Assembly (NCBI GenBank): GCA_018269075.1
Contig: JAFDVJ010000026.1
Location: forward strand, 46,698-110,697
DNA from: Acidobacteriota bacterium
Lineage (GTDB): Bacteria > Acidobacteriota > Blastocatellia > Pyrinomonadales > Pyrinomonadaceae
Direction: 5' to 3'
Length of the DNA: 64,000 nucleotides
The notes below the pieces were generated by a model. That model saw nothing but the letters and a program-made list of their open reading frames with translations, was not told the DNA's origin and did not search any database. Below are positions 5,066 to 38,997 of the stretch, piece by piece; position 1 is the stretch's first letter; every line of letters starts with the position of its first letter. The position numbers and the translations under genes were made by a program.

Positions 5066-5230
5066 GAGTGGAGAGTGGAGAGTGGAGAGTGGAGAGTCGG
5101 GGGAAGAAGGGGAGAAGGGGAGAAGGGGAGAAGAGAAGAAGAGGAGAAGAGGAGAAGAGGAGACGGGGAGACGGAAAATTCCGCAACGAACAATCCGAAA
5201 TCCGAAATCCGAAATCCGAAATCCGAAATC
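5066..5230. repeat. Composite run of GGAGAGT, GGAGAAGG and CCGAAAT microrepeats
   Basis: Three different simple repeats follow each other between two genes: a 7-bp GGAGAGT run (5066-5098), an 8-bp GGAGAAGG/GAGGAGAA run (5100-5170) and a 7-bp CCGAAAT run (5191-5230). Each recurs elsewhere in the window. No gene is present. Confidence 0.85.
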
Positions 5231-16858: not shown

Positions 16859-16965
16859 CTTCCAGCTTTTTATTGTAACGACAAAAGGAGTTCAGGCGAA
16901 GTCCGGGGCGGCGGCCGACCGTTTCGGAAACGCGGCGATCGATCCGGCGCGCCGTCAAAATTTTA

Positions 16966-16995
16966 TTTACCGGTAAAGCCGAAAATTCGTATAAT
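16966..16995 (+). promoter_or_regulatory. Probable sigma70-type promoter for the lipoprotein gene
   Basis: TATAAT at 16990-16995 lies 18 bp after a weak -35 TTTACC (16966-16971) and 29 bp before the chosen start at 17024. It overlaps the alternative ATG at 16994, which argues against that start. Confidence 0.5.
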
Positions 16996-17023
16996 GAAAA
17001 TCACGAAAGACGGAACAAATCTT

Positions 17024-17674
17024 ATGACAGGAAAAACGCTCGCCTTATTCACGCTCATTTTAATCGTCATCGCGAACGGCTGCACCGGCTTCACGCAGAG
17101 GGCGGTTCTCGAAGAAACGATCGCGCCGCCCGCCGCCAACCCGTCGATCAGGCCCGAAGAAATCCCGGCGGCCGAGATCGAAGCGCCGAATCTGCGGGAA
17201 AGCGACGGCAGCCTCGAACGGTTTATCCGCGGCGAGGTCGCCGGCGGCTGGCTCGACCGTGACGGGAATCGGATTCGACCGGCGAAGGACGCCGAAGGAA
17301 AACTGCTCGGGCGGCTCCTGCCGGCCGGAAAGAAGCAGTGGGAATTGAGTTATGCCGGACAGGTCGCGATGGACGCCGAGATCATCAGCGAATCGAACGT
17401 CACGACGACGACCGTCGAGAGCGGCGATTTCAAATCGGTGACGAAAACATACCGGCCCGGCGAAGGCGACCGAAAGCTGGCGCTCGCCCGTCAGTATACG
17501 GAAGAGTCGCCCGCGAGCCTGTGCCGGAACCTCGGCGGTTCGGGAATCGACGCCGCCGACTGCGTGCAAAACGCCCGCCGCATCCTGACGACCATCGACA
17601 GAAGCGCCCGCCGTCTGGTCGACGAACTGTACCGGCCGCTCCTCGATGGTAAAAACGACGCGGCCCGGCGATAG
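17024..17674 (+). CDS. Predicted lipoprotein of unknown function
   Basis: The 216-residue protein begins with a lipoprotein signal (MTGKTLALFTLILIVIANGC, lipobox ANGC). The mature part is polar and has about four cysteines; it ends in a helical segment. No family is recognised. An ATG at 16994 would add ten residues but overlaps a TATAAT promoter. It is the first gene after xdhC and may mark the left end of the island. Confidence 0.65.
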   Translation: MTGKTLALFTLILIVIANGCTGFTQRAVLEETIAPPAANPSIRPEEIPAAEIEAPNLRESDGSLERFIRGEVAGGWLDRDGNRIRPAKDAEGKLLGRLLPAGKKQWELSYAGQVAMDAEIISESNVTTTTVESGDFKSVTKTYRPGEGDRKLALARQYTEESPASLCRNLGGSGIDAADCVQNARRILTTIDRSARRLVDELYRPLLDGKNDAARR

Positions 17675-17842
17675 GCCCGCCCGGATATTTCCGCCCGCCG
17701 CCCGCTCTCCCGGACGAAGAATTTCAGCGAATCGTTCGAAATTGCCGATTCGTCGATCAGCTATTTTCCTGCTCGATCGTTGTTTCCGGCGGGACGAAAA
17801 CCGCGCCTGTCAGGACCCGCAAGACCGGCCGAAAAATTTTTG

Positions 17843-17871
17843 TAGACAAAGCCGTCGGAGATCTGTATAGT
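17843..17871 (+). promoter_or_regulatory. Strong sigma70-like promoter
   Basis: TAGACA (17843-17848) and TATAGT (17866-17871) are separated by 17 bp; each matches consensus at five of six positions. The first credible ORF downstream is at 18563, about 690 bp away, so transcription from here would cross the 21-bp tandem array. Confidence 0.55.
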
Positions 17872-18103
17872 GTTATCACTTTCAAAAGAACGAGCGCCCG
17901 CAAGCGTTAGTCGCGGTGTGTCTTAGGGCTTTCGAAAGCGTGTGGAATTCGATTGCGAAAGCTCGCCGCGACGCCGGGCGGACGGAATTTAATTTCGCGG
18001 ACGTTCTCGATCAAAAAAGACTTCCCGAAATCTTTTCCCGACCTGCCGCTTGTTCGCCCACGGTCTTCAAAATCGATCGACGGTCATTGAAAAGCTGCCG
18101 TTC

Positions 18104-18376
18104 GGAACCCGAATCCGGGATCAGGGAACCTGAATCCAAGATCAAGGTACCGGAATCCAAGATCAAGGTACCGAAATCTAAGGTCAAAGAACCGGAATCC
18201 AAGATCAGGGAACCCGAATCTTAAATCAGGGAACCTAAATCCAAGATCAGGGAACCCGAATCTTAAACCGAAGTACCCGAATCTTGAATCAGGGAACCTG
18301 AATCTTGAATCGGGGAACCCGAATCTTGAATCAGGGAACCCGAATCTGAGATCAAGGTACCCGAATCTAAGATCGG
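18104..18376. repeat. 21-bp tandem array, about 13 units
   Basis: Degenerate units like GAACCCGAATCTTGAATCAGG repeat head to tail with an exact 21-bp period. GGTACC alternates with GGAACC at the unit joint. There are no spacers, so it is not a CRISPR array. It lies in the 888-bp gap before the gene at 18563. The open frame 17916-18224 is only the repeat translated as PESKIK(V/E) heptapeptides. Confidence 0.9.
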
Positions 18377-18562
18377 GGAACCCGGCAGCCGCTTTTCACT
18401 TTCCCAAAATTGTCGTAAGGCTTGTGAAAAGAGGTTTTCGTTTGTGAAATCTCGCTTCCATTCCCCCCAAAACAGTTTTGCTAAAGACGTTTGTCAGTTC
18501 ACGGATCTCGAACTGAGGAGCATTAGTTAAACAGCTTAAAAGCAAGTTAGGAACAATTAATT

Positions 18563-18925
18563 ATGGCTAGATTGAAAAAAGACATCCCGAAGCAGGTGCG
18601 TCTCGCGCAGCAGCGGGTGGACGGAATGGTTTCGGTCGATGAAAGACTCGACCTCGGCAACGGCGTTTCGGTCGAAACGGTGAAAGCGGCGATCAAACGG
18701 GTGACCGACGGGATCAGCGAATACAACTCGCTGCTCGCCGAGGCGGACGAACGCTCGAACGACATCGACCGCGACCTCAAGGCGCTCGTCGATCTCAGCG
18801 CGCGGATCCTGTCCGGCACCGAATTCAAGTTCGGCCGCGACAGCAACGAGTACGAGATGGTCGGCGGCACGCGGCTCTCGGACCGCAAGAAAAGCGGCCC
18901 GAAAGGCCCGCGAGGGGTGAAGTAA
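18563..18925 (+). CDS. Small helical protein of unknown function
   Basis: The 120-residue charged protein is predicted mostly helical: a long amphipathic helix at about 45-90 (SEYNSLLAEADERSNDIDRDL) and a basic tail (KKSGPKGPRGVK). No signal peptide or TM segment is visible. Similarity to known families is not apparent. It lies downstream of the long repeat-bearing leader. A short hairpin (CAGTTC/GAACTG) lies about 45 bp upstream of the start. Confidence 0.6.
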   Translation: MARLKKDIPKQVRLAQQRVDGMVSVDERLDLGNGVSVETVKAAIKRVTDGISEYNSLLAEADERSNDIDRDLKALVDLSARILSGTEFKFGRDSNEYEMVGGTRLSDRKKSGPKGPRGVK

Positions 18926-19160
18926 GAGTCGAGAGTGGAGAGTGGAGAGTGGAGAGTCGGTCGCTTCGACATCGGGTCTTTGACCGGCGATGACTTTGAA
19001 GTCAGTGACGGAGGACATAAGGCTCAAGACTCAATACTCGCCGCTCGGGGCAAACGACAATTCGAAAGTGCCGGCGATGTGAGGGAGGAAAGACCCGTTC
19101 ATCTCGCCGGCCATATCGATTTCGGATTTCGGATTTCGGATTTCGGATTTCGGATTGCCT
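18926..19160. repeat. GGAGAGT and CCGAAAT heptamer runs in an empty gap
   Basis: The roughly 500-bp gap 18926-19429 has no convincing gene. It contains a GGAGAGT run (18926-18958) and a GGATTTC run (19117-19158). The rest, to 19429, shows nothing I can name. Confidence 0.7.
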
Positions 19161-19429
19161 TTTCGGCGGGCGTCGTTGATTTCGGGGAAAGTTAAAAGAC
19201 CGGTAACGAATCTTCCGTGTTTGTTGCCTGACCGTTCGGCACGGCAATCGATGAGCCCGCCGATTCGTTCGAGCATTTTTCGCAGACTGATCGGGTTGAT
19301 TTTTCCGCAAAGTCGGAGAGCGCGCACAGCGCCCCGCATCATTGACCGGGTCGTTTTTTTTTGATGACAGGCGGTCGGGTAAAGAGTTATGATCGGGTTG
19401 TTTCGAACCAACGATCGCGAGGACGGACT

Positions 19430-20230
19430 ATGAATATCGATCTTTTGAGAAAAGGCATCGCCGCGGTTTTTTGGACGGGATTGTCGATCGTTGCCGCTTT
19501 CGGTCAGCAGACCGAACCCGCGCTCCGCGACCGGCCGATCACCCTTCATCGCGAAAACGCATCTTTGGCCCTGATTATGGTGGATCTGATCGAGGACTTC
19601 GACGTCCCGGTCGGCTTCGAGGAATCTTCGCTCGATCACGATCACGACGATTATTTTTTCGACGTCAATCTGCCCTGTTGGGAAGATTGCTTCGACGAAA
19701 ACGGCCGGCTCAGGGTAAAAACGCCCAAGGACACTGTGGTTAAGGTGAAAAACCATCTTTTAACGATCGACGCCGACAATGAGCCGCTCGCGCGCGTGCT
19801 CGATCGGATCGTCGCGCAGATGGGATATTACCGCTGGGAGATCGTCGACGACGTGGTCAACATCATCCCGTCCGAAGGCCGCGACAAGCGTTTCGAAGCG
19901 CTTCTCGATCTCCGGATCCCTCATTTTAAGAACGTCGATTACCAAAAACGGGAATCGAAGCATATGGATAATGTGCGATGGGGGCTGGCGTTGCTGCCGG
20001 AAGTGGTCGATTTTTTCAAAGAGAATAACATCCGATTTTCCACCGAAGAACGCTTTACCCAGCGTCGGGAATTGTCGGTGCCGATCGAATACCGCGACCT
20101 GACGCTGCGGCAGCTGCTCAACCGTTACACGAAATTAAAGCGCGGCGGCTGGGCGGTCAAGATCAACCACAAGAAAATGAACGAATGGAAACAAAAGCCG
20201 CCGTTCGATTACGTCGACATTTTCGTCTGA
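19430..20230 (+). CDS. Secreted protein with STN-like repeats, unknown function
   Basis: The 266-residue protein has a signal peptide (LLRKGIAAVFWTGLSIVAAFGQQ). The region 30-150 reads like two secretin/TonB short N-terminal (STN) units: ITLHRENASLALIMVDL and LLTIDADNEPLARVLDRIVAQMGYYRWEI, ending VVNIIPSE. A third, weaker unit is near 225-250 (VPIEYRDLTLRQLLNRY). STN domains bind partners at secretins and TonB receptors, but here there is no barrel, so the role is unknown. ATG 19430 follows GCGAGGACGG; the longer frame lacks a signal peptide. Confidence 0.65.
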   Translation: MNIDLLRKGIAAVFWTGLSIVAAFGQQTEPALRDRPITLHRENASLALIMVDLIEDFDVPVGFEESSLDHDHDDYFFDVNLPCWEDCFDENGRLRVKTPKDTVVKVKNHLLTIDADNEPLARVLDRIVAQMGYYRWEIVDDVVNIIPSEGRDKRFEALLDLRIPHFKNVDYQKRESKHMDNVRWGLALLPEVVDFFKENNIRFSTEERFTQRRELSVPIEYRDLTLRQLLNRYTKLKRGGWAVKINHKKMNEWKQKPPFDYVDIFV

Positions 20231-20308
20231 CGAATCGGCGGCCGGGAGACGGCAGGCCTTGCGCGGTCTCGCCGTTCGTTCTTCAAACCGATTAAAAAGG
20301 GAGATTTT

Positions 20309-20971
20309 ATGCTTTACAGTGCGGAGATTCGCTGGTTTTTTCAAACGACGGACGAAGGAATTCCCGAAAGCCGTCTCGAATGGTTTAAGCGCGGTTACGC
20401 GATCGGCGATTCCGGGCTCGCGGCCGAGCGGGCGCGCGCGGATTATTATCTGCGGTTTCCGCAGTGCGACACGGTCGGCGTCAAATTGCGCGGCGTGCCC
20501 GGAGCGGGAAAGAACAACTTCGAGATTAAGGCGCTTTTCGCGCCGCCGCGCCTGCTCGAACACGGCGAAACGGTTCGCGGGCGCACCGATCAGTGGGTCA
20601 AATGGTCGTCGGACCGGATTGAACTGCCCGCCGTCGGGGACGCGGCCGAATGGAACGGCGAGCAATGGATCCGGGTCGGGAAGACGCGATACCTGCGGAA
20701 ATTCTCGATCGACGGCGGCAAGCCTCAGGAAGTCGCGGCGGACGAACGGCCGGCGGCCGGCTGCAACGTCGAACTGACGGCGCTCGATACGGACGGCGCG
20801 GCGCGTTTCCGGCATTCGCTCGGCTTCGAAGCGTTCGGCCCGCCGGCCCGCATCCATTCGATCCTGGTCGAAACGCTCGGGTTTTTCTTCGCAACGGCCG
20901 GCGCGCCGCCCGCCGGCGAGCTCGGCATCGAAAATTCGCTCAGCTATCCGACGTGGCTCGCGACGCGCTGA
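20309..20971 (+). CDS. Protein of unknown function, possible CYTH/TTM-like fold
   Basis: The 220-residue cytoplasmic protein has a good ribosome site (AAGGGAG 6 bp upstream). The spacing of charged strand motifs (SAEIRWFF, DYYLRFP, VGVKLRG, NFEIKAL, WVKWSSD, YLRKFSI, NVELTAL) resembles the eight-stranded tunnel of CYTH/triphosphate tunnel enzymes. The canonical ExExK start reads AEIRW here, so this is a weak suggestion. It follows the STN-like gene by 78 bp and may be co-transcribed. Confidence 0.55.
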   Translation: MLYSAEIRWFFQTTDEGIPESRLEWFKRGYAIGDSGLAAERARADYYLRFPQCDTVGVKLRGVPGAGKNNFEIKALFAPPRLLEHGETVRGRTDQWVKWSSDRIELPAVGDAAEWNGEQWIRVGKTRYLRKFSIDGGKPQEVAADERPAAGCNVELTALDTDGAARFRHSLGFEAFGPPARIHSILVETLGFFFATAGAPPAGELGIENSLSYPTWLATR

Positions 20972-21027
20972 GACGTTCGCCGCGAGCGTGAAGCGAACTT
21001 CAAGATCGGGCGGAAATTCTGGAGTCC

Positions 21028-21190
21028 GGAGTCTTGAGTCCGGAGTCTTGAGTCGGGCGCGGGCGGATGTCTTTATTTGGCCGTCAGACGCCGAAGACAG
21101 GCGTGACGATCCGGTCGAAACCGCTTTCGTCGGAAAAACGCTTGACCGGGACTTCAGACTCAGGACTTCAGACTCAAGACTCAAGACTCG
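21028..21190. repeat. Inverted GAGTCCG / GACTCAA heptamer pair
   Basis: GAGTCCGGAGTCTTGAGTCC (from 21031) and the oppositely oriented GACTTCAGACTCAGGACTTC run (21151-21190) can pair over about 100 bp. They lie immediately upstream of promoter PA at 21240. Confidence 0.75.
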
Positions 21191-21239
21191 ATTTCCCCAT
21201 CGCTTTTACCGAAGCCTCACGCGCGGAAAAATAAAATCG

Positions 21240-21267
21240 TTGACTTTGAAAAACGACCTGTGATAGC
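21240..21267 (+). promoter_or_regulatory. Promoter PA, duplicated at 34335-34362
   Basis: TTGACT (21240-21245), 16 bp, GATAGC (21262-21267) preceded by TGT. The element and the next 90 bp are nearly identical to the reverse strand at 34270-34362, ahead of the caspase operon. This strongly suggests that both operons share a regulator or sigma factor. Confidence 0.65.
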
Positions 21268-21478
21268 TTTATTCAACCGACAAAACATACCGGCTCGGCG
21301 AAAATATCCCGTCAGGGTTAAAGGGGAATTTTCAACAGGGAACGGGCCGCCGACAGGGTGAATTGTAATCGAAGGGAAGCCGCGTTTCCTTTTCGAATAA
21401 ACCGCTCGAACGGTTTTTCCGGTTCGAGTCTGGCAGTCAGCGTCCGCCGGCGCGGAGCCCGGACGAGGGAACGTTTTA

Positions 21479-21550
21479 ATGTTGGGTTTCTTCTACAAAA
21501 TCGCTTTCAGTCTCAATGCCGAAGCTTCCACGAAGGCAAGCATCGATTGA
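21479..21550 (+). CDS. Possible 23-residue leader peptide
   Basis: ATG at 21479, with GAGGGA 8 bp before it, opens a 23-codon frame starting MLGFFYKI and ending ASTKASID. Fifteen of 23 residues match the start of the short ORF at 34131-33952 on the other strand, at the same place behind a matching promoter. Nucleotide similarity continues past the stop codon, so a conserved untranslated leader is an equally good explanation. Confidence 0.35.
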   Translation: MLGFFYKIAFSLNAEASTKASID

Positions 21551-21739
21551 CGCTGCATCGAACCGCCCGTCCGCACGACGCGCGGTTTTCGTGTTTTCCC
21601 GAAGAAACTCGCGAGATATTTTGATCGAACGGTAAGATAAACCGAAAAAAAAACATAACAATCGGACAGCGGATTACTGATTTTCCCGTTTTCGAGACGT
21701 CGCTTTTTCTTTTTGATCGTCAATCGCTCGAAACGAACC

Positions 21740-21774
21740 AATCCGAAATCCGAAATCCGAAATCCGAAATCAAA
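21740..21774. repeat. CCGAAAT heptamer run before the 337-residue gene
   Basis: Five heptamer units lie between the leader and the ribosome-binding site of the gene at 21792, so they would be in its 5' untranslated region. Confidence 0.85.
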
Positions 21775-21791
21775 TTGGGAGGAACAAAACA

Positions 21792-22805
21792 ATGCCAGCA
21801 TTTGTCAGTATCGACGGGAAATTGGCCTTGCCCGCCGAAGCGCATCCGGAAGATCCGAAATACAAGCCGATCACGGTCGGCGAGCCGGTCTGCATCGAGA
21901 TCGTCCATATGGCGTTCGGCAACGTCAAGGACTGGTGGGGAAAATCCGAGATGCTCGTTTCGAGCTGGGCGAAGACCGGGAGCACCGCCAAACCCGGCGC
22001 GCGGCTCGTCAACGCGCTGCGGAAGAAAATCCCGCAGTTTTATCATCTTTCGGACCTCGGCGCGTCCGAATACGGGCATCAGCTCGTCTTTTATATGCCG
22101 GTCTACAGCGACGAGACGATCCGTTTCTCGATCGAGTTTCTCGAGATCGACAAACTCGGCGGCGACGGCATCTCGAAGCTCGGCAATGCTTTGAAAGGAC
22201 TCGGCACATTGCCGGTCTTCGCGCCGCAGCTCGCCTATCTGGCGCTCGCGCCGGAGATTCTCAAACTCGGGCAGGAGCTTTACAACATCATCAACCGCAA
22301 CGACCAGATCCTGCTCGAACATCTCGATCTCGGCCGCGACCCGGACGGCAACATCCTCTCGTCGGGCCGCTACGTGCTGGTGCGCGGCAATTACAACCCG
22401 CTCAAATTCATCGAGGATTACAAGCTTTTGTCCGACAACAAGCTCTACACCCAGGACGGGCGGCTCGCCGAGGAGGCCGGGATGACGGACGCCTACGTCG
22501 TCGTCCGCGTCAACGCCGTCGAGAAGAAGGAATACAAGGATTTCGAAGCGACCGGCGCGGCGCAGGAGATCCTCGACACCGTGCTCAACCAGAACGTGAC
22601 CGCTTCGGTCGCCGACCTGATCACCGACATCGTCAAGGATTCGCAGGAGTTCGGCACCGTCAAAAAAGTCCTCGATCTCGACAAACAGCTCGCCAAGGCG
22701 ACGACCGACGACGAAAAGAAACGACTCAAAACGGCGATCGAAACCGAGCTCAAAAAGCTCTCCGACGACCAGGCCGGTCTGTTGCGGGAAGCACTCAAAC
22801 TGTGA
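21792..22805 (+). CDS. Unrecognised protein, first gene of operon A
   Basis: The 337-residue protein has a GGGAGG ribosome site. Residues 1-120 look like beta strands (EPVCIEIVHMAFG, GHQLVFYMPVY, IRFSIEFLEI). A hydrophobic helical stretch (about 135-160, LPVFAPQLAYLALAPEI) follows, then a second strand-rich part (about 175-235) and a charged helical C-terminus. No signal peptide is present. I do not recognise the family. Its position upstream of a lysozyme and opposite a caspase operon makes it a candidate adaptor, substrate or pore-forming target. That is inference from context only. Confidence 0.7.
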   Translation: MPAFVSIDGKLALPAEAHPEDPKYKPITVGEPVCIEIVHMAFGNVKDWWGKSEMLVSSWAKTGSTAKPGARLVNALRKKIPQFYHLSDLGASEYGHQLVFYMPVYSDETIRFSIEFLEIDKLGGDGISKLGNALKGLGTLPVFAPQLAYLALAPEILKLGQELYNIINRNDQILLEHLDLGRDPDGNILSSGRYVLVRGNYNPLKFIEDYKLLSDNKLYTQDGRLAEEAGMTDAYVVVRVNAVEKKEYKDFEATGAAQEILDTVLNQNVTASVADLITDIVKDSQEFGTVKKVLDLDKQLAKATTDDEKKRLKTAIETELKKLSDDQAGLLREALKL

Positions 22806-22926
22806 CGATTTCGGATTTCGGATTTCGGATTTCGGATTGGTCTGTTGTCGTCGGTTGACGATTTACAAGCAAAATCCGGGCTTCGAAAACGAACAATCCG
22901 AAATCCGAAATCCGAAATCCGAAATC
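22806..22926. repeat. Facing CCGAAAT heptamer runs between operon A genes
   Basis: A GGATTTC run (22806-22842) and a CCGAAAT run (22892-22926) in opposite orientation fill most of the gap between the stop at 22805 and the start at 22940. Folding would create a hairpin and hide or replace a normal ribosome-binding site for the lysozyme gene. Confidence 0.85.
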
Positions 22927-22939
22927 CAACTGTTTTATT

Positions 22940-24463: not shown

Positions 24464-24496
24464 GCGGGCGGTTCGAAATTTAACAGGGGAGGCGTT

Positions 24497-25009
24497 ATGG
24501 GGAAAGAGAATCAGCCGGGCGAGACCGGCCTGCGCTATCTGCGGGAAATCGCGGCGCTCCTGATCGCGGCCGTCGTGCTCGTCGGGTTCGTCGTGATGAT
24601 GCGCGAGACGTTCGGGCTCGTCGGCGCGGGCCGGGAAGCCGATTTCCGGCAGGCGAAGGATCTGCTCGAAATCTTCACGGGCTTTCTCGGGATCGTCATC
24701 GGTTATTATTTCAACCGCGTGACCTCGGAGACGCGCGCCGAAAAGGCCGAATCGGCCGCCCGCACGGCGAGCGAAACGGCGCGCGGCGCGGTCGAAGCGC
24801 ATCAGGAAACCGCCCGCGAATCGAAAGCCGCGCGCGAAACCGCCGACGCCGCGAAAAAAGAGCTCCGAAACCTCGTCCGGGCGGCCGGCGCGCTGCTCAG
24901 GGACGCGGATCCGTCCGCGGCGCGCGGCGCGGCGCTCGTCGAAAGCGCCGTCGACGAGCACGAATCGCTCCGCGCCGCGCTCGAACGTGCCGAACGGTTT
25001 CTGGAATAG
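24497..25009 (+). CDS. Two-TM coiled-coil membrane protein (holin-like topology)
   Basis: The 170-residue protein has hydrophobic helices at about 17-37 and 53-70, the second ending GIVIGYYFNRVTSE, followed by about 90 residues of alanine- and glutamate-rich coiled coil. A GGGAGG site precedes the ATG. Size, two TM helices and a charged tail next to a signal-less lysozyme resemble holins or spanin-like proteins. No sequence family is recognised, so lysis is only a hypothesis. A membrane scaffold is equally possible. Confidence 0.65.
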   Translation: MGKENQPGETGLRYLREIAALLIAAVVLVGFVVMMRETFGLVGAGREADFRQAKDLLEIFTGFLGIVIGYYFNRVTSETRAEKAESAARTASETARGAVEAHQETARESKAARETADAAKKELRNLVRAAGALLRDADPSAARGAALVESAVDEHESLRAALERAERFLE

Positions 25010-25042
25010 CGGAGCGGCAATTAGCTTGATCCCTCGATCCCG

Positions 25043-27262: not shown

Positions 27263-27274
27263 TTTTTCTCTCCG

Positions 27275-29470: not shown

Positions 29471-29574
29471 AAAACCTCCCATACCGATGTCGGATGGCGA
29501 ATGTCCGATGGCGGACGGTTCGGAATTCAGCCGGCCGTCGTCATCATTAGTTCGAAAGGGTCGCGAAGCTCCGT

Positions 29575-30483: not shown

Positions 30484-33400
30484 CACAGTTTCTCCTCGAA
30501 CAGCAGCCGGCCGCCGTCGCGGTCTTCGTAATAGGAAACGGTCGCCGCCGCCCCGTCGAGCCGGATGACCGAGTAGCAGTGAGTGTAAAAGGCGTCGCCG
30601 CGGCTCAGCGCGACCTCGCGGTTGACCGGCACGTCGGCGTTTTTCGCGGTCGCCGGCATCTCGAAATTGCCGACCGGAAACGCGCTGCCGCCGACGCAGC
30701 GGCCGCGTTCGAGGTTCATAAACGGCTCGAAGACGACGAGATTATGCTCGTGGCCCCACTGCCAGAGCGCGATTTTCGGCAGCAGCGGCGCGAGCTGGTC
30801 GTAAAGCCGCCGGTTGCAGCTTTGACCGTCGAACTGGTCGTCGGCCGAAAAAAGCTGGTGATGCGAGAAGAGGATCGTCCGCCGGTCGCCGGCGTTGTCG
30901 ATCTTGTCGCGGAGCCATTCGAGCTCGCTCTGTTCGAGATACGTCGGGCCCGCGCCGAGCCGGTCGTGAAGCGCCGTGTCGAGCCCGATCAATTGCCAGT
31001 ATCGATTGCGCAGACAGAAATAACTGGCCATCTTCCGGTCGAAGCCGTTGAGCGCCTGGAGCCGGTCGAGCAGCGCGTAAAACGGTTTGCCGCCCGCGTA
31101 GAGATCGTGGTTGCCGGGCAGCGCGAACGAGAGGATCTTCGAATTTTCCGGGTCGAGGATCGCCGTCCACGGCCGGTAGAAATAATTTTCGACCTCGAAT
31201 TCGGTGCCCGCGTAATAGATGTCGCCGAGATGGATCGCGACCTGCGGGTCGTGGCCCCGGACCTGCCGGAGGACTTCGAGCGCCTCGGGCTCGCCGGTCG
31301 CCCAGTCGCCGACGACGCCGACGACCGCGTTTTCCGGCAGTCCGTCGACCACGAAATCGTCCGCGTCGACCGGCGTCCGGTAGGGGACGTGGCCGCCTTC
31401 CCGGAGAAACTTGAGATACTGGAGCAGCGATTCTTTGTAATGCGTATCGCAGTCGCCGAACTTCGCGGTCAGCGCCTGTTTATAGGCCTCGTATTTAGCG
31501 TCATCGCCCCAGATCTTGGCGTTGAACCATTCGCGCGCGACGCCGACGGCCATACTCGCGCAGTATCGGACGGTGTCGACGATGCCGCGCTCGCCGGCGT
31601 CGTCGAGCGTCGCCCGGTCGAATGACCTGAGCGACTGTTCGTCGATCCGGTTCTGCGCGACCGCGACGCAGTACTGCGCGATCTCGTTGACGATCGGGTG
31701 GCTCAGCTCGGGCCGGCTGAACTCGAAGACCGTGCCGTTGACGCTCCGCGATTTCGCGGCCGACTGCTCGCGGGCGATCGTTTCGTCGAAGGCCGACTGC
31801 AGGAGCGAGAGCGCCGGGTCGGCGACGTGCGCGATCGTCGCGCGGCGGACGCGCGCCTCGACCTCGACCGTCGTCCAGAAACGGCTTTTCGGCGTCGAAA
31901 GGTTGACGACCGGCTTCATATTTCGCAGATCGGGCGCGGCAAACGCCGTCAGCAGCTGTTCGAGCGCGTCGGTCGGCAGACTGCGGCCGATCTCGGCCGG
32001 CGGCGCGTCGAGCGGCGACATCTGGAGCCAGCGAAAGCTCGTCCCCTCGACGGTCGCGAAGACCTTGAGAACGTCGGTGCCTTCCTGGTAATCGAGCGGC
32101 AGCCCGGCCTCCATCTCGAACACGAGCGCGTTGTCGACGCCCGGTTCGAGCAGCTCATAATCCTTCTGGCCCGGATCGGGATAGATCTGCGCGACGCTCC
32201 AGTCGGGCGCGAGGTCGAGCACGACGACGTTGAGCGCCGTGTCCGAAAGATTCGTCACGCGCAGACCGGCCCGTTCGCCGGTCGCGAGCGGCCGCGCGGG
32301 CACGCCGAGCGGGACGAACGTCTTTTGCCGGTCGCGATTTTTCTGCATCAGGCCGAGCTCGGCCGTCAGTTTGCGGGCGAGCGGGGAAGCCGGATCGGTG
32401 TTGTCGATCAGCCGCACGTTGCGGTATTTCGTGAGCTGGACGAGCCGCTCGAAGATTTTGGCGCTCGCCCCCGGCTCGCCGGCCCTGACGACGGGCCGCA
32501 GGTTCGGCACCGGCCGGCCGGCGGCGTCGCGGATCGCGAATTCGCCGTCGCCGTCGATCGTCACCTGAAAATCGGCGTCCTCGCCGGCGGCCGCGAGCCG
32601 GATCCATTTGTCGCGGGCGGCGAGATCGCCCTCGCTGCGGCTGATGTAATCGGCCAAATCGTCGACCGCGGCGGCGAATTCGCCGCCCGGCCGGTCGAGC
32701 CGGACGCGCCCGCGCAGCCGGATGCCGACGCCGAGCAGGACGGCCGGCATTCCCTCTTCGAGCTCGCCGGCCCGCTCGCCCGAGACGACGGCGGCCCAGG
32801 TTTCGGTCGCTTCCGGATCGCCGAGCTCGACGACCGCGAGACGCCCGGCCGGATCGGAGAAATCCGCGCCGGCCGCCGGGTAAACCGCGAACTGCGCGCC
32901 CCGCGACACGCCCTGCGCAAAGCCGGTGTTGAGCAGCACGCGGCGGCCGGCCGGATCGACTTTGAGGACGTTGACTGAGGCCGCCGAGGCGAGCGCGGCC
33001 GCGCCGAAGATTTCGCGGTCGCGGTCGCCTTCGATCTGCGGCGTCTGGTTGACGAATTTGGCGTGGACCTTCGCGACGACGCGGTTGTAGAGCATCCGGT
33101 AGGTATAGCCCGGGCCGGTCTGGCGGAGCGCGTCGAGCATCCAGTAGGTCAGCGCGCCGTTGCGCTCCTTGCCGTCGAAGGCGTATTCGCTGGCGAGCTC
33201 GTTGGCGCGGCAGGCGGCGATGAAGACGCAGTTTTCCGGCAGCGGCAGATTCCAGCCCTTCGCCGGCGCGAAATTCCGCGCCGCTTCCGGGAAGCTTTGA
33301 AAATCGGCGGTCAGCGTTTTCCGCGAGGCGACGAGGCTGCGGCGCTGCGGCGGCCGCGTGTCGATGCTCGCGATCCCGCGCGGGACGGCGCCCGCTTCGC

Positions 33401-33926
33401 CGCGGGTCGCGCCGCCCGAATGACAGCTGTCGAGGACGAGCGTGACGAGCAGCTTTTTTTCGGCCATCGTTTTGAGCAGACAGGCGAGCTCGACATCGCG
33501 CAGGTAGCCGCCGCCCGCTTCGCCGATGTCGCACGGGACGAGCGATTCGTCGAGGCCGGTTCGGCCCTTCAGCTCGGGAAACATCGTCGCCGAACGGCCG
33601 CCGTGGCCCGAATAATGGATGTAGACGAGATCGCCGGCAGCGGCCCGCGCGGTCACGTCGCGAAACGCCCTGACGATGTTTTTGTAGGTCGGCAGGCGTT
33701 TCGCCGGTTCCAGCGGGCGGTCGTCGGGGCCGCGCGTCGAGGTCAGTTTGAAGATCTGCCCGTCGGGCAGGCCGAGCCGGCTCTTGAGCATCTCGGCGAC
33801 GTGCTCGGCGTCGCGGACGCAGCCGCCGAGATGCGGGTAGTAAGTGCCGTCGGGCAGCGGGATTTGCGAGTAGCGGTCGATTCCGATCAACAGCGCGAAG
33901 ACTTTCGGGGGTGAATTTTTCGGCAT
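30483..33926 (-). CDS. Caspase (C14) - metallophosphoesterase fusion
   Basis: The 1147-residue protein starts PKNSPPKVFALLIGIDRY, a classic peptidase C14 opening. The dyad is H108 (IHYSGHGG) and C168 (LVLDSCHSGG). The centre (about 260-850) is beta-rich, with a DUF4384-like stretch (LRVTNLSDTALNVVVLDL), then helical. The C-terminus (861-1147) is a calcineurin-type phosphoesterase with all motifs: GDWATG (873), GDIYYAG (901), GNHD (938), SHHQ (1021), GHEH (1058). It has no signal peptide. AAGGAG lies upstream of ATG 33926. It is the first gene of operon B. Coupling of a caspase to an intact metallophosphoesterase is unusual. Confidence 0.9.
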   Translation of the reverse strand: MPKNSPPKVFALLIGIDRYSQIPLPDGTYYPHLGGCVRDAEHVAEMLKSRLGLPDGQIFKLTSTRGPDDRPLEPAKRLPTYKNIVRAFRDVTARAAAGDLVYIHYSGHGGRSATMFPELKGRTGLDESLVPCDIGEAGGGYLRDVELACLLKTMAEKKLLVTLVLDSCHSGGATRGEAGAVPRGIASIDTRPPQRRSLVASRKTLTADFQSFPEAARNFAPAKGWNLPLPENCVFIAACRANELASEYAFDGKERNGALTYWMLDALRQTGPGYTYRMLYNRVVAKVHAKFVNQTPQIEGDRDREIFGAAALASAASVNVLKVDPAGRRVLLNTGFAQGVSRGAQFAVYPAAGADFSDPAGRLAVVELGDPEATETWAAVVSGERAGELEEGMPAVLLGVGIRLRGRVRLDRPGGEFAAAVDDLADYISRSEGDLAARDKWIRLAAAGEDADFQVTIDGDGEFAIRDAAGRPVPNLRPVVRAGEPGASAKIFERLVQLTKYRNVRLIDNTDPASPLARKLTAELGLMQKNRDRQKTFVPLGVPARPLATGERAGLRVTNLSDTALNVVVLDLAPDWSVAQIYPDPGQKDYELLEPGVDNALVFEMEAGLPLDYQEGTDVLKVFATVEGTSFRWLQMSPLDAPPAEIGRSLPTDALEQLLTAFAAPDLRNMKPVVNLSTPKSRFWTTVEVEARVRRATIAHVADPALSLLQSAFDETIAREQSAAKSRSVNGTVFEFSRPELSHPIVNEIAQYCVAVAQNRIDEQSLRSFDRATLDDAGERGIVDTVRYCASMAVGVAREWFNAKIWGDDAKYEAYKQALTAKFGDCDTHYKESLLQYLKFLREGGHVPYRTPVDADDFVVDGLPENAVVGVVGDWATGEPEALEVLRQVRGHDPQVAIHLGDIYYAGTEFEVENYFYRPWTAILDPENSKILSFALPGNHDLYAGGKPFYALLDRLQALNGFDRKMASYFCLRNRYWQLIGLDTALHDRLGAGPTYLEQSELEWLRDKIDNAGDRRTILFSHHQLFSADDQFDGQSCNRRLYDQLAPLLPKIALWQWGHEHNLVVFEPFMNLERGRCVGGSAFPVGNFEMPATAKNADVPVNREVALSRGDAFYTHCYSVIRLDGAAATVSYYEDRDGGRLLFEEKL

Positions 33927-33951
33927 ATCAAACTCCTTTTCGGTAAAGCGA

Positions 33952-34131
33952 TTAGTGAAAACAAAACGGCGCCGGCGCGGGCCTTGAGGCCGGCGGCGCT
34001 GAAAAAAAACAGGCGACGTAAAAGCCGTTCGGGGAACGGCCCGGCGGTCTGACGCAGCGATAACTGATGCTTGACTTCGTGGAAGCGGCGGCATTCGAAA
34101 GCGTGACGATTTTGTAGAAGATTCCCAACAT
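33952..34131 (-). CDS. Possible 59-residue leader ORF
   Basis: The frame starts MLGIFYKIVTLSNAAASTK and continues to residue 59 with a proline- and cysteine-containing tail. Its first 23 codons match the short ORF at 21479. GGGGA lies 6 bp before the ATG, and the frame ends 25 bp before the caspase start. It could be a regulatory leader peptide, a small protein or an untranslated leader conserved as RNA. Confidence 0.4.
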   Translation of the reverse strand: MLGIFYKIVTLSNAAASTKSSISYRCVRPPGRSPNGFYVACFFSAPPASRPAPAPFCFH

Positions 34132-34334
34132 TATGATTCCCCGGCCGCGAATTCGCGCGGCCAAAACGGCCTTTTCCCAAACTCGAAAACGACTGAGCGC
34201 CCGCGATTTCCGCATTCGGAAACGCGCTCCGGTCCATTCAAGTCTCCCTGTTTCCGGCTCGTCTTTTCAGAAAACGTTCCCTTGACCCTGACGGAAAATT
34301 TTCGGCGAGCCGCTTGTTTTGTCGGTTGACTAAA

Positions 34335-34362
34335 GCTATCACAGGTTATTTTTCGAAGTCAA
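34335..34362 (-). promoter_or_regulatory. Promoter PB of the caspase operon, duplicate of PA
   Basis: Read on the minus strand: TTGACT (34362-34357), 16 bp, GATAGC (34340-34335), with the same flanks as PA at 21240. It lies about 410 bp before the caspase start. Confidence 0.65.
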
Positions 34363-34465
34363 TATTTTTATTCCGGCCCCGTTTTTCGATCGGACCGGTC
34401 GCGCTCCCGCTTGGCGGCTGACATCGGAGATGTTTTTTTTCGGCAAAAACTTTTGCGGATTTTTC

Positions 34466-34494
34466 TTGACGGGAAAAAAAAGGCGGCATACTAT
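34466..34494 (+). promoter_or_regulatory. Promoter PC of the TPR-CHAT unit
   Basis: TTGACG (34466-34471), 17 bp, TACTAT (34489-34494). It points away from PB, making a compact divergent regulatory hub at 34335-34494. The leader to the ATG at 34793 is about 290 bp with no gene. Confidence 0.6.
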
Positions 34495-34792
34495 TTAGTA
34501 ATCCAAAAGCGTCTGTCTTCCGAATCGGCCCGTCGGGTCTTTCCGTAATTCGGAAAATGTTTGTCGGTCCCGGGCTCCGGCAGCCCGTCCGCGAGCCGGG
34601 AACCGACCCTTAATAACCGCGGAACCGGTTTGCACTACTCCCGGAATCCGAAAGATATTTTTACTTCTCGAAAATAATCGGGGGCAGTTATTGCCTGATT
34701 TTTTCATTTACTGAAGAAAGCCATTTAAGCGGCCGGAATCAAAATCGAGAACGGTTCGTGCCGAAAAATCGGTCGTCCGACGAGACGGATTT

Positions 34793-37700
34793 ATGAAAAG
34801 CGCTCCAATCGATCAAATCGTCGACAAAAAGAAACCGGCCGCGGTCGGAAAGGTGCTTTTTCCGGTCGCCGCCGGACTGCTCCTGCTGGTCGTGCTTTTC
34901 GGCGTCTGGAAATCCTTTGTCCGCCGGCCGTCCGCCGAGCAGGAAGGGCTGACCGAGTTGCGCGCCGCCTTTCGCGGGCGGCGAAACATCGAATCGCGGA
35001 CGACGGGCGGTCTCGATTACGCGCCGCTGACCGTTACGCGCGGCGCCGAACAGATTTTGCCGGCCGATGAAACGGCCCGCCTCCGTGCCAAAAGTCTGCT
35101 GCTCGAGGCGGTCGGCGGGGCCGAAGACGCCGGCCCGTATCACGCGCTCGGGCTTTTCTATCTGAACGAAAAACAGTTCGACGCGGCGCTCGGTCAATTA
35201 AACAGCGCGCTCGTTTACGCGCCCGACGATCCCGGTCTCCGAAACGACGCCGGCGCAGCCTGTCTCGAAAAAGCGGCGCTCGCCGACACGGACGGCCGGG
35301 GCGACGAATTCTTCGAAAACGCCGACGCCGGTCTCCGGCATCTCGACCGCGCGCTCGCGCTCGACGCGGACCGGCTCGAACCGCTGTTCAACCGCGCGCT
35401 GCTCCTGCAGAAAATGCGGCTCGGCGGCGAGGCCCGCCGGGCGTGGGAAAAATATCTGGAAAAGGACGCCGCCTCGCCGTGGGCCGAAGAGGCCCGGCGC
35501 AATCTGGAGCTGCTCGAAAAACGGGCCGCCTCGATCCGCAGCAGGGCCGAGATCCTGAGCGATTTTCTCGACGCCTTCCGGGCGCGCAACGATTCCGAAG
35601 CGTGGCGGATCGTCAGCGAAACGAAGGAGTTCGTGACGGGCGTGATGCTGTCGGGGCAGCTGGCGCAGGGCTTTCTCGAGGCCGACGCCGAGAACCGGAA
35701 GACCGAAGCGGCCGAGCTGCTGTCGGCGCTGCGCTATCTCGGCGAGCTCGAAAACAAAAACGCCGGCGACCCGTATTTCGCGGAACTGGCCGCCTTTTAT
35801 CAAAAAAGCTCCGCGCCGCAGCGGGCGCGGCTCGGCGCGGCGCAGCGCGAGATCCAAAAAGCGCAGGCTTTTTTGTTCGAGCCGAATTTCAACGAGGCGC
35901 TGAAATCCTACGATCGGGCGCGGCAGCTGCTCGCCGCCGCCGGCGACGTCTGGAACGCCGGGCTCGTCGAGTATCAGATCTGTTACTGCCTGTGCCAGAT
36001 CGACCGGCTCGATGAAAGCAACGCGCGGCTCAAAGCCTTATCCGACCGGAGCCGGCTCAGAAATCATAAATGGCTCCGGAGTCTCGCCGACAACTGGATC
36101 GGCGGAAACTATCTCTCGCTCGGCGAAATCTCGAAGGCCGTCGCCGCCAACCGGCAGTCGCTCGAGCTCGCCCGCGAGACCGGCGACGTCTACAACATCC
36201 AGCGAAACTACATCCAGATGGCCGAGGAATACCGGACGATCGACAATGCCCCGAAAGCCCTGAGCCTGATCCGCGAGAGCATCGGTTATCCGACGACCTA
36301 TCACGAGTTTCCCCGCCAGACGTGGCGCAACCTGTTTTTTACGACGCAGATCCTTTTTACCTTCAAGCTCTACGCGGCGGCGGCCGTCTATGCCGGGGAA
36401 GAGATCGATTTTGCCGGCGATCGGCTCAAGGACAACTGGATGATTCACGCCGGCCTGATTCACGCGGGCGTCATCAACGGTCAGCTCGGCCGGTTTCCCG
36501 AGGCGCTCGGGCAGGTTCGAAAAAGCGTCGAGCTCGCCGAAACCTTTCCCGACGAGGAGATGAAGCAGCGGCTGCTCGCCGAATCGTACACGACGCTGGC
36601 GCATCTCGAGCGGCTGTCCGGCGACTGCGGCGCGGCCGTCGAAAATTACGGCCGGGCGATCGAGATCGGCGAGAAAATGCGGTCGGTGATCGGCGTTTAC
36701 GACGCGCGCCGCGGCCGCCTGCTCTGCTATGTCGCCGGCGACGATCCGGCCGTTCGTTCGGAGATGGAGATTCTCAAGCGGCAGTTCGACGAAAACCGCC
36801 GGCAGATCGGCGAGGAGGCCGACCGGAACATTTTTTTCGACAACCAGCAGAACGTCTACGATATCGCGACCGGCTACGCCTATTTGCGGCTTCGGGATCC
36901 GGAACAGGCCTTCGATTACGCGGAAAGCTCGCGCGCCCGGTCGCTGCTCGATTCGATCGAAAAAGACGCGAAGCCGGTTTCCGAACCGCTCGGGCCGGCG
37001 GCGATCCGGCGGTCGATGCCGGCCGGGGCGCAGATGCTTTACTATGCGGTGCTGCCCGACCGGATTCTGATCTGGCATCTTTCGGGCGCGGATTTTACGA
37101 CCGTCGAAGCGCCCGTCGGACAGGATCTGCTCGAAGACCGGATCCGGCGCTATTCGAAGCTTTTGATCGCGCGGACCGACGACGACGAGCGGCGCGCGCT
37201 CGCCGGCGAGCTGTACGGATGGCTGATCGCGCCGGTCGAAAGCTCGCTCGAAAAGGACAAACCCGTCTGCATCGTCGGCGATAAGGCGCTGCTCCGGCTG
37301 CCGTTCGCGTCGCTCGTCACGCCGGCCGGAAAATATCTGATCGAGGATTACGCGCTCAGCTACGCGCCGAGCGCGACGGTTTTCATCAAGGAGACCGAGA
37401 TCGCCGCCCGCAAGCCGGCGGCCGGCGGCGAAACGCTGCTGAGCATCGGCAATCCGGCATTTTCACGGTCGGAATACGCCGGTCTCGATAATCTGCCGTC
37501 GGCGGCCGACGAAGCGCGGGGGATCGTGGACGGTTATCGAAATCCGAAGCTCTTTCTCGCCGGCGAAGCGCGCAAGGAATCGATTCTGAACAACCTGAAT
37601 TCGACCGACGTCGTTCATTACGCCGGCCATTACGTGCCGAACGAAAAATCGCCCGCGCAGTCGAAGTTTCTGCTCGCGGCGGGCGATCTGACGGTCGAGG

Positions 37701-38041
37701 AGATCAACCGCCAAAAGCTGTCGCGCGTCCGGCTGATCGTGCTTTCGGCCTGCGAAACCGGCGTCGAGACCTATTACGGCGGCGAGGGGATGATCGGCGC
37801 GGCGCGGGCGTTTCTCGAAGCCGACGTGCCGCTCATCGTCGGCAGCCAGTGGGCGGTCGATTCCGAAGCGACGGCCGCGCTGATGATCAGATTTCACGAT
37901 TACCGTAAAAAACAGAATCTGCCGACGACGGCGGCGCTCCGGCGGGCGCAACTCGATCTGCTGACCGCGCCGGATTCACGATTTCGAGAGCCGTTCTACT
38001 GGGCGGGATTCCTCCCGATCGGCGGCTATGCGAACTACTAA
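34793..38041 (+). CDS. TPR-CHAT protein with N-terminal TM anchor
   Basis: The 1082-residue protein has one TM helix at about 18-40 (VLFPVAAGLLLLVVLFGVW), TPR-like helical repeats from about 100 to 720 and a C-terminal CHAT domain (about 790-1080). The CHAT dyad is H946 (VVHYAGHY) and C987 (VLSACETG); GSQWAVDSEAT follows, as in canonical CHAT proteins. The topology suggests that the TPR and CHAT parts are on one membrane face. CHAT proteases bound to TPRs are known to be activated through partner recognition, as in the TPR-CHAT protease of type III-E CRISPR. No CRISPR is seen here. The start has only a weak ribosome site. Confidence 0.9.
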   Translation: MKSAPIDQIVDKKKPAAVGKVLFPVAAGLLLLVVLFGVWKSFVRRPSAEQEGLTELRAAFRGRRNIESRTTGGLDYAPLTVTRGAEQILPADETARLRAKSLLLEAVGGAEDAGPYHALGLFYLNEKQFDAALGQLNSALVYAPDDPGLRNDAGAACLEKAALADTDGRGDEFFENADAGLRHLDRALALDADRLEPLFNRALLLQKMRLGGEARRAWEKYLEKDAASPWAEEARRNLELLEKRAASIRSRAEILSDFLDAFRARNDSEAWRIVSETKEFVTGVMLSGQLAQGFLEADAENRKTEAAELLSALRYLGELENKNAGDPYFAELAAFYQKSSAPQRARLGAAQREIQKAQAFLFEPNFNEALKSYDRARQLLAAAGDVWNAGLVEYQICYCLCQIDRLDESNARLKALSDRSRLRNHKWLRSLADNWIGGNYLSLGEISKAVAANRQSLELARETGDVYNIQRNYIQMAEEYRTIDNAPKALSLIRESIGYPTTYHEFPRQTWRNLFFTTQILFTFKLYAAAAVYAGEEIDFAGDRLKDNWMIHAGLIHAGVINGQLGRFPEALGQVRKSVELAETFPDEEMKQRLLAESYTTLAHLERLSGDCGAAVENYGRAIEIGEKMRSVIGVYDARRGRLLCYVAGDDPAVRSEMEILKRQFDENRRQIGEEADRNIFFDNQQNVYDIATGYAYLRLRDPEQAFDYAESSRARSLLDSIEKDAKPVSEPLGPAAIRRSMPAGAQMLYYAVLPDRILIWHLSGADFTTVEAPVGQDLLEDRIRRYSKLLIARTDDDERRALAGELYGWLIAPVESSLEKDKPVCIVGDKALLRLPFASLVTPAGKYLIEDYALSYAPSATVFIKETEIAARKPAAGGETLLSIGNPAFSRSEYAGLDNLPSAADEARGIVDGYRNPKLFLAGEARKESILNNLNSTDVVHYAGHYVPNEKSPAQSKFLLAAGDLTVEEINRQKLSRVRLIVLSACETGVETYYGGEGMIGAARAFLEADVPLIVGSQWAVDSEATAALMIRFHDYRKKQNLPTTAALRRAQLDLLTAPDSRFREPFYWAGFLPIGGYANY

Positions 38042-38062
38042 AAACACCAAAGGAGAAAACTA

Positions 38063-38941
38063 ATGACCACTGAATTTCCGGTATTTACCGACACGATCCC
38101 CGAAAATCCGAAGCTCAAGATTCGTTTGAGCGGTTTGGGGGTTTTATGTTTCAGCGAGGAGCACAACCGCGCGGAGAGCGGCTATCTCGACCTTGAGGAT
38201 CACGACGCGATGTTTATTATGACGAGGGATTCGGACACCCGGACGGTAATCAAATACGCTTCGATGCGCGGTTTGACGGTCGAAGTTGCGACGCCGGAGA
38301 AGGGCCTCGGGAAATGTTTTTACCGCGACGGTTCTCCGATGAACTTCGAAAATATGCTCGATCTGGCGAAGATTTACCCGAACGCGTCCGGTTTTGACCC
38401 GGCGGCCAAATTTCAGGCGCGTATTTTTATCGACGACGCCGTTTATTTTACCGACGCCGCGACCATCAAAAAGGTCATCCCTTTCGATCAGAACAAGCCG
38501 ACCGTCAAATTCAACCCGCGAACGATCGGACAGGCGCTTTTCGCGTATGTCGAAAACCGGGAAGTCACGGTCGCGATTAACGGCGAAACGATTCCGCTCG
38601 AATCCGGCGAAACCTACACGATGCATATTCAATCGAACTGCCGCGAAGTCAAGGAAAGCGATTTCAAACATTACTTCGACATTCTCAAAAATCCCGGCGA
38701 CCTTCGGATAAACCTGGATTTTCCCGAGGGTCACAGCCCGACGTCGCTCGTGTACGAAATGCGTCTGTTCGATGCCCTGCAGGAGCAGTTTAAGTCGCTG
38801 CTGCTCAAAGGCGAAGAAGATGACAAACAGAGGGCGATCGCAGATTTTCAGGGCAGGCTGAGCTTTCTGCAGGACATCCGGTGCGTGCCGAAGCCGTGTT
38901 TGAAGGTCGTTTACGCCGACGAACCGCGCAGTCTGCCGTAA
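38063..38941 (+). CDS. Unrecognised partner of the TPR-CHAT protein
   Basis: The 292-residue soluble protein has AAGGAG 7 bp before its ATG and starts 21 bp after the TPR-CHAT stop, so the two are surely co-transcribed. It is strand-rich (KIRLSGLGVLCFSEE, VTVAINGETIPLESGETYTMHI) with a helical segment at about 240-275. I do not recognise a family. By position it could be a substrate, inhibitor or sensor partner of the CHAT protease. Confidence 0.7.
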   Translation: MTTEFPVFTDTIPENPKLKIRLSGLGVLCFSEEHNRAESGYLDLEDHDAMFIMTRDSDTRTVIKYASMRGLTVEVATPEKGLGKCFYRDGSPMNFENMLDLAKIYPNASGFDPAAKFQARIFIDDAVYFTDAATIKKVIPFDQNKPTVKFNPRTIGQALFAYVENREVTVAINGETIPLESGETYTMHIQSNCREVKESDFKHYFDILKNPGDLRINLDFPEGHSPTSLVYEMRLFDALQEQFKSLLLKGEEDDKQRAIADFQGRLSFLQDIRCVPKPCLKVVYADEPRSLP

Positions 38942-38961
38942 ACGAAGGGAAAATTGAAAGC

Positions 38962-38995
38962 GGCCGGAGCAATCGTGCGCACGATTGCTCCGGCC
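38962..38995. terminator. Bidirectional hairpin terminator
   Basis: A perfect 17-bp inverted repeat with no spacer (GGCCGGAGCAATCGTGC and its complement) lies between the convergent stops at 38941 and 38998. ATTTATTTT follows on the plus side. It may also mark the right edge of the island. Confidence 0.75.
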
Positions 38996-38997
38996 AT

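What the first reader, a model, noticed from the sequence alone, without database searches (positions are those of the whole stretch)
17024..38995. Caspase/CHAT/STAND/lipase/lysin island between xdhC and xdhA/xdhB
Three units encode a caspase-phosphoesterase, two CHAT proteases, a STAND ATPase, a lipase-like hydrolase, a lysozyme fusion and three unrecognised proteins. xdhC (15821) and xdhB (38998) flank it on the same strand. Such proteins are individually known in bacterial conflict or death systems; this combination with a lysin is not one I recognise. Separation of xdhC from its partners suggests insertion.
Basis: partly seen in the sequence, partly recalled or inferred. Interest (0 to 1): 0.88.

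Follow-up and report, generated by a model that had tools for sequence, protein, structure and literature searches.

The report
Caspase–STAND self-destruct operon with lysin
Between two xanthine-dehydrogenase genes this bacterium carries an inserted gene cluster whose core, seen again in related bacteria, encodes a caspase-phosphatase, a lipase-like enzyme, a protease joined to an NAD-cutting-type domain that has lost its active-site motifs, and a switch ATPase predicted to sit in the membrane; the set is likely an immune-like device that would kill the infected or damaged cell, possibly by lysing it.

Summary
A ~22 kb block (16859-38997) lies between xdhC and xdhB; in all six relatives examined those genes sit about 20-2,770 bp apart, so the block is an insertion. 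It is not one system. The order recurs in another genus (G026), and without lipase in G145; homologue lists share contig lengths above chance. SIR2_2-nSTAND1 is a widespread two-gene pair (63 of 80 loci). The SIR2 motifs are intact in 25 of 28 stand-alone copies but in 10 of 38 with an N-terminal extension; here all three are damaged. I read it as an NLR-like receptor-protease death system in which SIR2 became an adaptor. TPR-CHAT and the endolysin with its holin-like neighbour are separable modules. However, six listed homologues of the caspase-phosphatase carry a fused phage-type GH19 endolysin, so a lysis output is plausible. No function was tested.

The parts
15821..16858 (-). xdhC, left flank
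   Evidence: Pfam XdhC_C/XdhC_CoxI
38998..41277 (-). xdhB, right flank
   Evidence: Pfam MoCoBD_1/2; neighbour of xdhC in 6 of 6 relatives examined
16859..38997 (.). inserted block absent from the same place in the relatives examined
30483..33926 (-). caspase (metacaspase fold) + C-terminal purple-acid-phosphatase-type phosphoesterase, 1147 aa
   Evidence: (catalytic-type residues invariant in 40 sequences)
29575..30483 (-). PGAP1-like alpha/beta hydrolase (lipase-like); its ATG overlaps the caspase gene's stop codon
   Evidence: (HSMGG)
27275..29470 (-). CHAT protease fused to a SIR2_2 domain whose NAD-binding/catalytic motifs are damaged (GLD, TTGFD, PG)
25043..27262 (-). nSTAND1 NTPase, one predicted TM helix (residues 473-491), C-terminal alpha/beta domain with a sub-threshold LytR_C match
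34793..38041 (+). predicted TM + TPR + CHAT protease; separable module
38063..38941 (+). unknown protein; a distant relative follows a TPR-CHAT gene in G124
22940..24463 (+). phage-type endolysin: lysozyme + peptidoglycan-binding + weak L,D-transpeptidase-like domain; no hydrophobic stretch found
24497..25009 (+). small predicted membrane protein, weak holin-family match
   Evidence: phrog_608, E 0.001
21792..22805 (+). orphan protein upstream of the endolysin
17024..17674 (+). unknown, hydrophobic N-terminus with a lipoprotein-like cysteine (my reading)
18563..18925 (+). small unknown ORF
19430..20230 (+). unknown, no family match
20309..20971 (+). unknown ORF, no family match

Best explanation
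The core (25043-33926) is a four-gene operon that likely works as an NLR-like receptor-protease cell-death or abortive-infection system. Inferred mechanism: the nSTAND1 ATPase, predicted to be anchored in the inner membrane with its C-terminal LytR_C-like domain outside, would sense an envelope- or phage-derived signal and oligomerise. It would then recruit the CHAT-SIR2 protein through the SIR2_2 domain, whose NAD-binding and catalytic motifs are damaged here and which would act only as an adaptor. The CHAT protease would be switched on and would activate or cleave the caspase-phosphatase. That protein, together with the lipase-like enzyme, would carry out the killing by proteolysis, phosphoester cleavage and membrane damage. 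The neighbouring endolysin and small membrane protein would provide lysis if they are co-opted, which is the least certain step. Shown by sequence: gene order, domains, conserved or lost motif residues, recurrence of the operon and its insertion. Inferred: sensing, recruitment, cascade, death and phage defence.
Against: No function was tested. PADLOC gave one solid match, a caspase (1e-36), and weak ones: SAVED_CHAT (1e-11), ThsA (4e-5), NsnB and AbiLi (0.002-0.003). No caspase-phosphatase was found in viral contigs. Full-length caspase-phosphatase also occurs without CHAT-SIR2/STAND beside it (G138), and the lipase family mostly sits apart: in 9 lipase loci fetched, 3 have a related phosphoesterase near. 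LytR_C is below Pfam's cut-off (E 0.004; 8 of 27 homologues at E<=0.05) and topology is from hydropathy only. The SIR2 statistic ignores phylogeny and rests on called start codons. A CHAT fusion does not always go with decay: L019 keeps all motifs and L112 keeps N and H; stand-alone L006, L037 and L063 have lost some. No match to the window's lysin lies within 12-16 kb of the caspase gene or operon in G145 or G138; other lysin families were not sought there. Model confidence is moderate (pTM 0.59 and 0.48).
Confidence: 0.5

Rival explanations
1. The operon is a regulated housekeeping device, such as envelope-stress proteolysis, developmental signalling or differentiation, rather than immunity or death. 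The phosphoesterase would act on a phosphorylated or nucleotide substrate and the proteases would mature a few targets.
For: CHAT proteins are numerous in this genome (13 matches); the CHAT part matches cell-division protein HetF far below cut-off (78.5 against 1200 bits); the sensor-like domain is weakly LytR_C-like.
Against: Sporadic presence: caspase plus phosphoesterase in this form in 4 of 162 class genomes including its own and in 0 of 3 same-genus genomes (at most 4 candidates per genome were scored, so some may be missed); domain swapping on the SIR2_2 subunit is typical of conflict systems.
Confidence: 0.25
2. All three units act as one programmed-lysis island: the STAND-protease core fires and the endolysin with its holin-like neighbour lyses the cell, with TPR-CHAT as a second protease branch.
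For: Six of the 120 listed caspase-phosphatase homologues carry an N-terminal GH19 domain; for the one tested, P0299, it matches phage endolysins (phrog_181, E 4e-59). The window's lysin is a phage endolysin by PHROGs (phrog_7, E 3e-58) and is followed by a membrane protein with a weak holin match. G026 has both the operon and a relative of the lysin's C-terminal part, on different contigs.
Against: The lysin relative in same-genus G002 has no other island protein in the 16 kb read; none beside the caspase gene in G145 or G138; the lysin unit lies convergent to the operon; TPR-CHAT is a common dispersed family.
Confidence: 0.15
3. The block is an accretion hotspot of unrelated cargo next to xdhC, with no functional link between units; only the core operon is a unit.
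For: Different base composition of the left part up to about 23 kb (GC 0.53-0.57) and the core (0.62-0.68); the xdhB-xdhC gap also holds extra DNA in G002 and G003; units have unrelated distributions.
Against: GH19-caspase-phosphatase fusions elsewhere; a TPR-CHAT-type protein or domain beside related caspases in G138 and G018.
Confidence: 0.4

Closest known systems
Avs5 (AVAST type 5, SIR2-STAND; PMC12931631, passages read)
   Same: SIR2-type domain working with a STAND ATPase and a C-terminal sensor region
   Different: Avs5 is one polypeptide with GAGXS and TTNXD motifs, where N110 and D112 are needed; here SIR2 and STAND are two genes, SIR2 carries CHAT, and GAG, the Asn and the His are changed (the Asp is kept)
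nSTAND1/EAD and VMAP ternary conflict systems (PMC8195603 and PMC7159879, passages read)
   Same: nSTAND1 NTPase; caspase, alpha/beta-hydrolase and calcineurin-type phosphoesterase effectors; alpha/beta hydrolase-caspase pairing; swapping of effector domains
   Different: no MoxR, vWA, VMAP, FGS or EAD match on the core proteins; the SIR2_2 subunit as a platform is not in the passages I read
DSR2, ThsA and KomC SIR2 NADases
   Same: a profile of 16 stand-alone SIR2_2 relatives plus the window matches their solved structures
   Different: the window's copy lacks the Gly-rich, Asn and His residues
Metacaspases and purple acid phosphatases
   Same: fold and catalytic-type residues
   Different: joined in one protein with a ~550-residue middle region without a Pfam match
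Craspase TPR-CHAT (Csx29)
   Same: TPR + CHAT layout of 34793-38041
   Different: NCBIfam Csx29 model scores 14.8 against a cut-off of 300

Membership tests
Avs5 (SIR2-STAND) | SIR2 and STAND in one polypeptide | tested here: not met
   two genes 12 bp apart
Avs5 (SIR2-STAND) | GAGXS and TTNXD motifs | tested here: not met
   GLD and TTGFD in the window; need for N110 and D112 is from PMC12931631 (passages)
SIR2 NADase | catalytic His of the HG motif (Asn also works in Avs5) | tested here: not met
   Pro at that place; column checked against KomC H146N
nSTAND1 STAND NTPases | nSTAND1 domain with Walker A and B | tested here: met
   Pfam 148.5 bits against cut-off 27.1; GASGVGKS at 49, LLIILDQFE at 142
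VMAP ternary systems | MoxR ATPase, vWA and VMAP | tested here: not met
   no such Pfam match on the island proteins scanned
EAD/bDLD3-nSTAND1 systems | EAD, death-like or FGS domain on the core proteins | tested here: not met
   none matched in the window; EAD7 and EAD2 do occur on two SIR2_2 relatives
Caspase family C14 | His/Cys dyad | tested here: met
   H108 and C168 invariant in 40 sequences
Purple acid phosphatase superfamily | fold and metal-ligand motifs | tested here: met
CHAT proteases | His and Cys of the active site | tested here: met
   His267/Cys313 in the 749-aa frame of 27275-29524; His946/Cys987 in TPR-CHAT
Phage endolysins | endolysin profile match | tested here: met
   phrog_7 E 2.6e-58 over residues 1-503
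Holins | holin profile match | tested here: inconclusive
   phrog_608 E 0.001 over residues 56-139
Craspase Csx29 | curated model cut-off | tested here: not met
   14.8 bits against 300
Anti-phage defence systems | protection against phage | not testable with these tools
   needs an experiment

The most novel reading that the evidence does not exclude
A bacterial pyroptosis-like programmed-lysis pathway: a transmembrane NLR-type receptor reads peptidoglycan or envelope state through an outward SPOR/LytR_C-like domain, signals through a SIR2 domain that has turned from NAD-cutting executioner into adaptor, fires a CHAT-to-metacaspase cascade, and ends in lysis by a lipase and a captured phage endolysin, which in some relatives is fused to the caspase itself.
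Probability: 0.12. Interest if true: 0.85.

Novelty: new variant of a known kind. Interest (0 to 1): 0.62.

Why it matters
The SIR2_2-nSTAND1 pair is found in records of many bacterial phyla, and in the one search for papers that name both nSTAND1 and SIR2 only PMC8195603 appeared, with one mention of each. It offers a natural series: mostly intact SIR2 when alone, often damaged when another domain is fused. That makes effector replacement in an immune-type receptor directly testable. A conserved operon joining a metacaspase, a phosphatase, a lipase and a STAND switch, with endolysin fusions in relatives, would also be a plausible bacterial counterpart of inflammasome-type lytic death.

Tried and rejected
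Rejected: that SIR2 here is an active NADase (motifs damaged). Rejected: one co-inherited three-unit island. Rejected: Craspase membership of TPR-CHAT. Led nowhere: tRNA, direct or inverted end repeats of the block; viral contigs; plasmids, with partial caspase or phosphoesterase matches in 16 records and none over 80% of the query; terminator scan at chance (31 found, 30.5 expected) and promoter scan somewhat above it (7 found, 3.7 with sd 1.4 expected), neither used; Foldseek and VIA rows for the STAND C-terminal domain, as the ATPase part fills the list; solved-structure profile search with the STAND alignment, no match. Foldseek's viral library was not searched. Literature searches: 21, 31, 32, 69, 81, 101, 103; papers opened only as passages (PMC8195603, PMC7159879, PMC10907252, PMC12931631) or as abstract and passages (PMC13174449); the rest seen as listings. 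My reading that some fused SIR2_2 proteins begin with a DUF4062-like motif is recalled and was not confirmed by Pfam (L041), so it is not used.

Rows dropped: the SIR2 table counts 66 proteins, 28 stand-alone and 38 extended, the window among the extended. Left out were L001 (part of the window), the partial L035, L049, L059 and L113, and the duplicate or partial loci in the skip list. De-duplication removed ten more extended and one stand-alone protein, chosen by eye. Some extensions may be over-called starts (for instance L013). Pfam was run on 20 of the 37 extended proteins other than the window. One search aligned 40 of the 120 listed caspase homologues. Mended while checking: the CHAT cysteine is 313, not 311 as I first read; one contig length was mistyped and the count was redone on full lists with the same shared lengths but a higher chance level.
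Full report
WHAT IS THERE. The window is part of a 132 kb contig of a 7.4 Mb assembly; names given to some homologues suggest an Acidobacteriota lineage near Pyrinomonadaceae, which is an inference. Between xdhC (15821-16858) and xdhB (38998-41277), both on the minus strand, lie four plus-strand ORFs of unknown function (17024-20971), a plus-strand unit of an orphan, an endolysin fusion and a small membrane protein (21792-25009), a minus-strand four-gene operon (25043-33926) and a plus-strand pair (34793-38941). An IS200-type transposase lies between xdhB and xdhA.

INSERTION. Eleven of 36 genomes searched, own genome included, have xdhB at E<=1e-100. I fetched seven other genomes (three with 37-42% identity were left); G021's contig was too short to use. 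In 6 of the 6 remaining, including the same-genus G001, G002 and G003, xdhC lies on the same strand about 20 to 2,770 bp from xdhB (alignment ends, so approximate). G002 and G003 hold extra DNA there. So the 22 kb block is new at this place in this lineage. No long end repeats were found.

RECURRENCE. G026, another genus of the same family, has the last part of gene 1, then genes 2, 3 (interrupted) and 4 in the same order; the first part of gene 1 is on another short contig. G145 (contig of the same length as L003's, with the same match) has genes 1, 3, 4 and then a WD40-caspase-like protein. G138 has a full-length gene 1 beside a caspase-TPR-CHAT-AAA giant and an nSTAND2-caspase, but no match to genes 3 and 4 in the 34 kb read. 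In 162 class genomes caspase plus phosphoesterase in this form is found in 4 including the own genome, and the caspase part in G018 (at most four candidates per genome were scored). Longest-contig lengths printed for the three homologue lists coincide 8, 5 and 9 times against jitter means of 0.49, 0.44 and 0.37, three of them in all lists; equal length is good but indirect evidence for one contig and says nothing about order. A lipase near a caspase-fold protease and a related phosphoesterase occurs also in G017 and G020, and a lipase near the phosphoesterase in G030; in the other six lipase loci fetched no phosphoesterase match was near.

THE SIR2_2-nSTAND1 PAIR. Of the 17 without, two (L025, L033) have only about 500 bp of upstream DNA and 14 are in the more distant tail from L065 on. 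Records are titled Chloroflexi, Cyanobacteria, Acidobacteria, proteobacterial, actinobacterial, verrucomicrobial and others. N-terminal domains found by Pfam on 20 chosen proteins: CHAT, guanylate cyclase, metallophosphoesterase, PNP, BTAD/Trans_reg_C, EAD2, EAD7; three had none. The motifs (GxG, N, H) are all kept in 25 of 28 stand-alone proteins and in 10 of 38 with an N-terminal extension (Fisher 3e-7; after removing near-duplicates 24 of 27 and 7 of 28, 2e-6). By the His alone the contrast is weaker, 25 of 27 against 20 of 37 (8e-4). Phylogeny is not accounted for. The profile matches KomC, DSR2 and ThsA structures, and the His column is the one mutated in KomC H146N. The Avs5 paper reports that Asn of TTNXD is needed while His may be Asn (passages). 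In the window Asn is Gly, His is Pro and the second Gly of GAG is Asp: a predicted pseudoenzyme. Exceptions: stand-alone L006, L037 and L063 have lost some motif residues, and the CHAT fusion L019 keeps all.

LYSIN. The protein 22940-24463 matches phage endolysins over its whole length (phrog_7) and the next protein matches a holin family weakly. A full-length relative (55%) is in same-genus G002 without another island protein in the 16 kb read; the C-terminal part (53%) is in G026 beside a gene I read as another wall hydrolase, on a different contig from the operon. The link that matters is in homologues: 6 of 120 listed caspase-phosphatases carry an N-terminal GH19 domain, and for P0299, the one tested, it matches phage endolysins. 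So lysin and caspase-phosphatase do go together somewhere, with another lysin family.

TPR-CHAT. This family is found at E<=1e-100 in 38 of 162 genomes, at least four copies in the own genome. In G124 it is followed by a distant relative of 38063-38941 (26%) and preceded by a gene I read as a sigma factor, without a family search. I treat it as a separate module.

MECHANISM. Committed reading: nSTAND1 receptor, SIR2_2 adaptor, CHAT protease, caspase-phosphatase and lipase as executioners. Sensing, recruitment, cascade and outcome are inferred. The rest of the block may be accretion; the lysis step is the weakest.

NOVELTY. The only paper in the library naming both nSTAND1 and SIR2 is PMC8195603, once each; other searches gave no description of this pair or operon that I saw in listings or passages. 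Subscription papers are not covered, and the pair may be in print under other names. Parts and logic are known; the arrangement and the decay series look new.

Noticed in passing
window 41574-42116: IS200/Y1-type transposase between xdhB and xdhA, outside the block.
   Followed up: no
window 16565-16605, 19118-19157, 21731-21771, 22807-22842, 22883-22932: Arrays of a 7-base repeat (GATTTCG/CGAAATC) recur in both orientations; two inverted arrays bracket the orphan gene 21792-22805, and one lies inside xdhC. Similar arrays occur at 5192, 10691, 12251 and 45441.
   Followed up: partly
window 18062-18418: Tandem 21-base repeat, 12 registers, in a stretch without a convincing gene.
   Followed up: no
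L158:8882-15418 (G138:C678): A 2178-residue protein with caspase, TPR, CHAT and AAA domains in one chain, divergent from a caspase-phosphatase and followed by an nSTAND2-caspase fusion.
   Followed up: partly
L199:4788-10928 (G017:C642): Same-strand cluster of lipase, caspase, trypsin and a protein with a partial phosphoesterase match (no Pfam hit), without a match to the nSTAND1 gene.
   Followed up: partly
G000 whole genome: Thirteen CHAT domains over the Pfam cut-off in one assembly, a third one on this contig outside the window.
   Followed up: no
L006, L037: Cyanobacterial stand-alone SIR2_2 proteins with lost motifs that are about 540 residues long, unlike the other stand-alone copies.
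   Followed up: no
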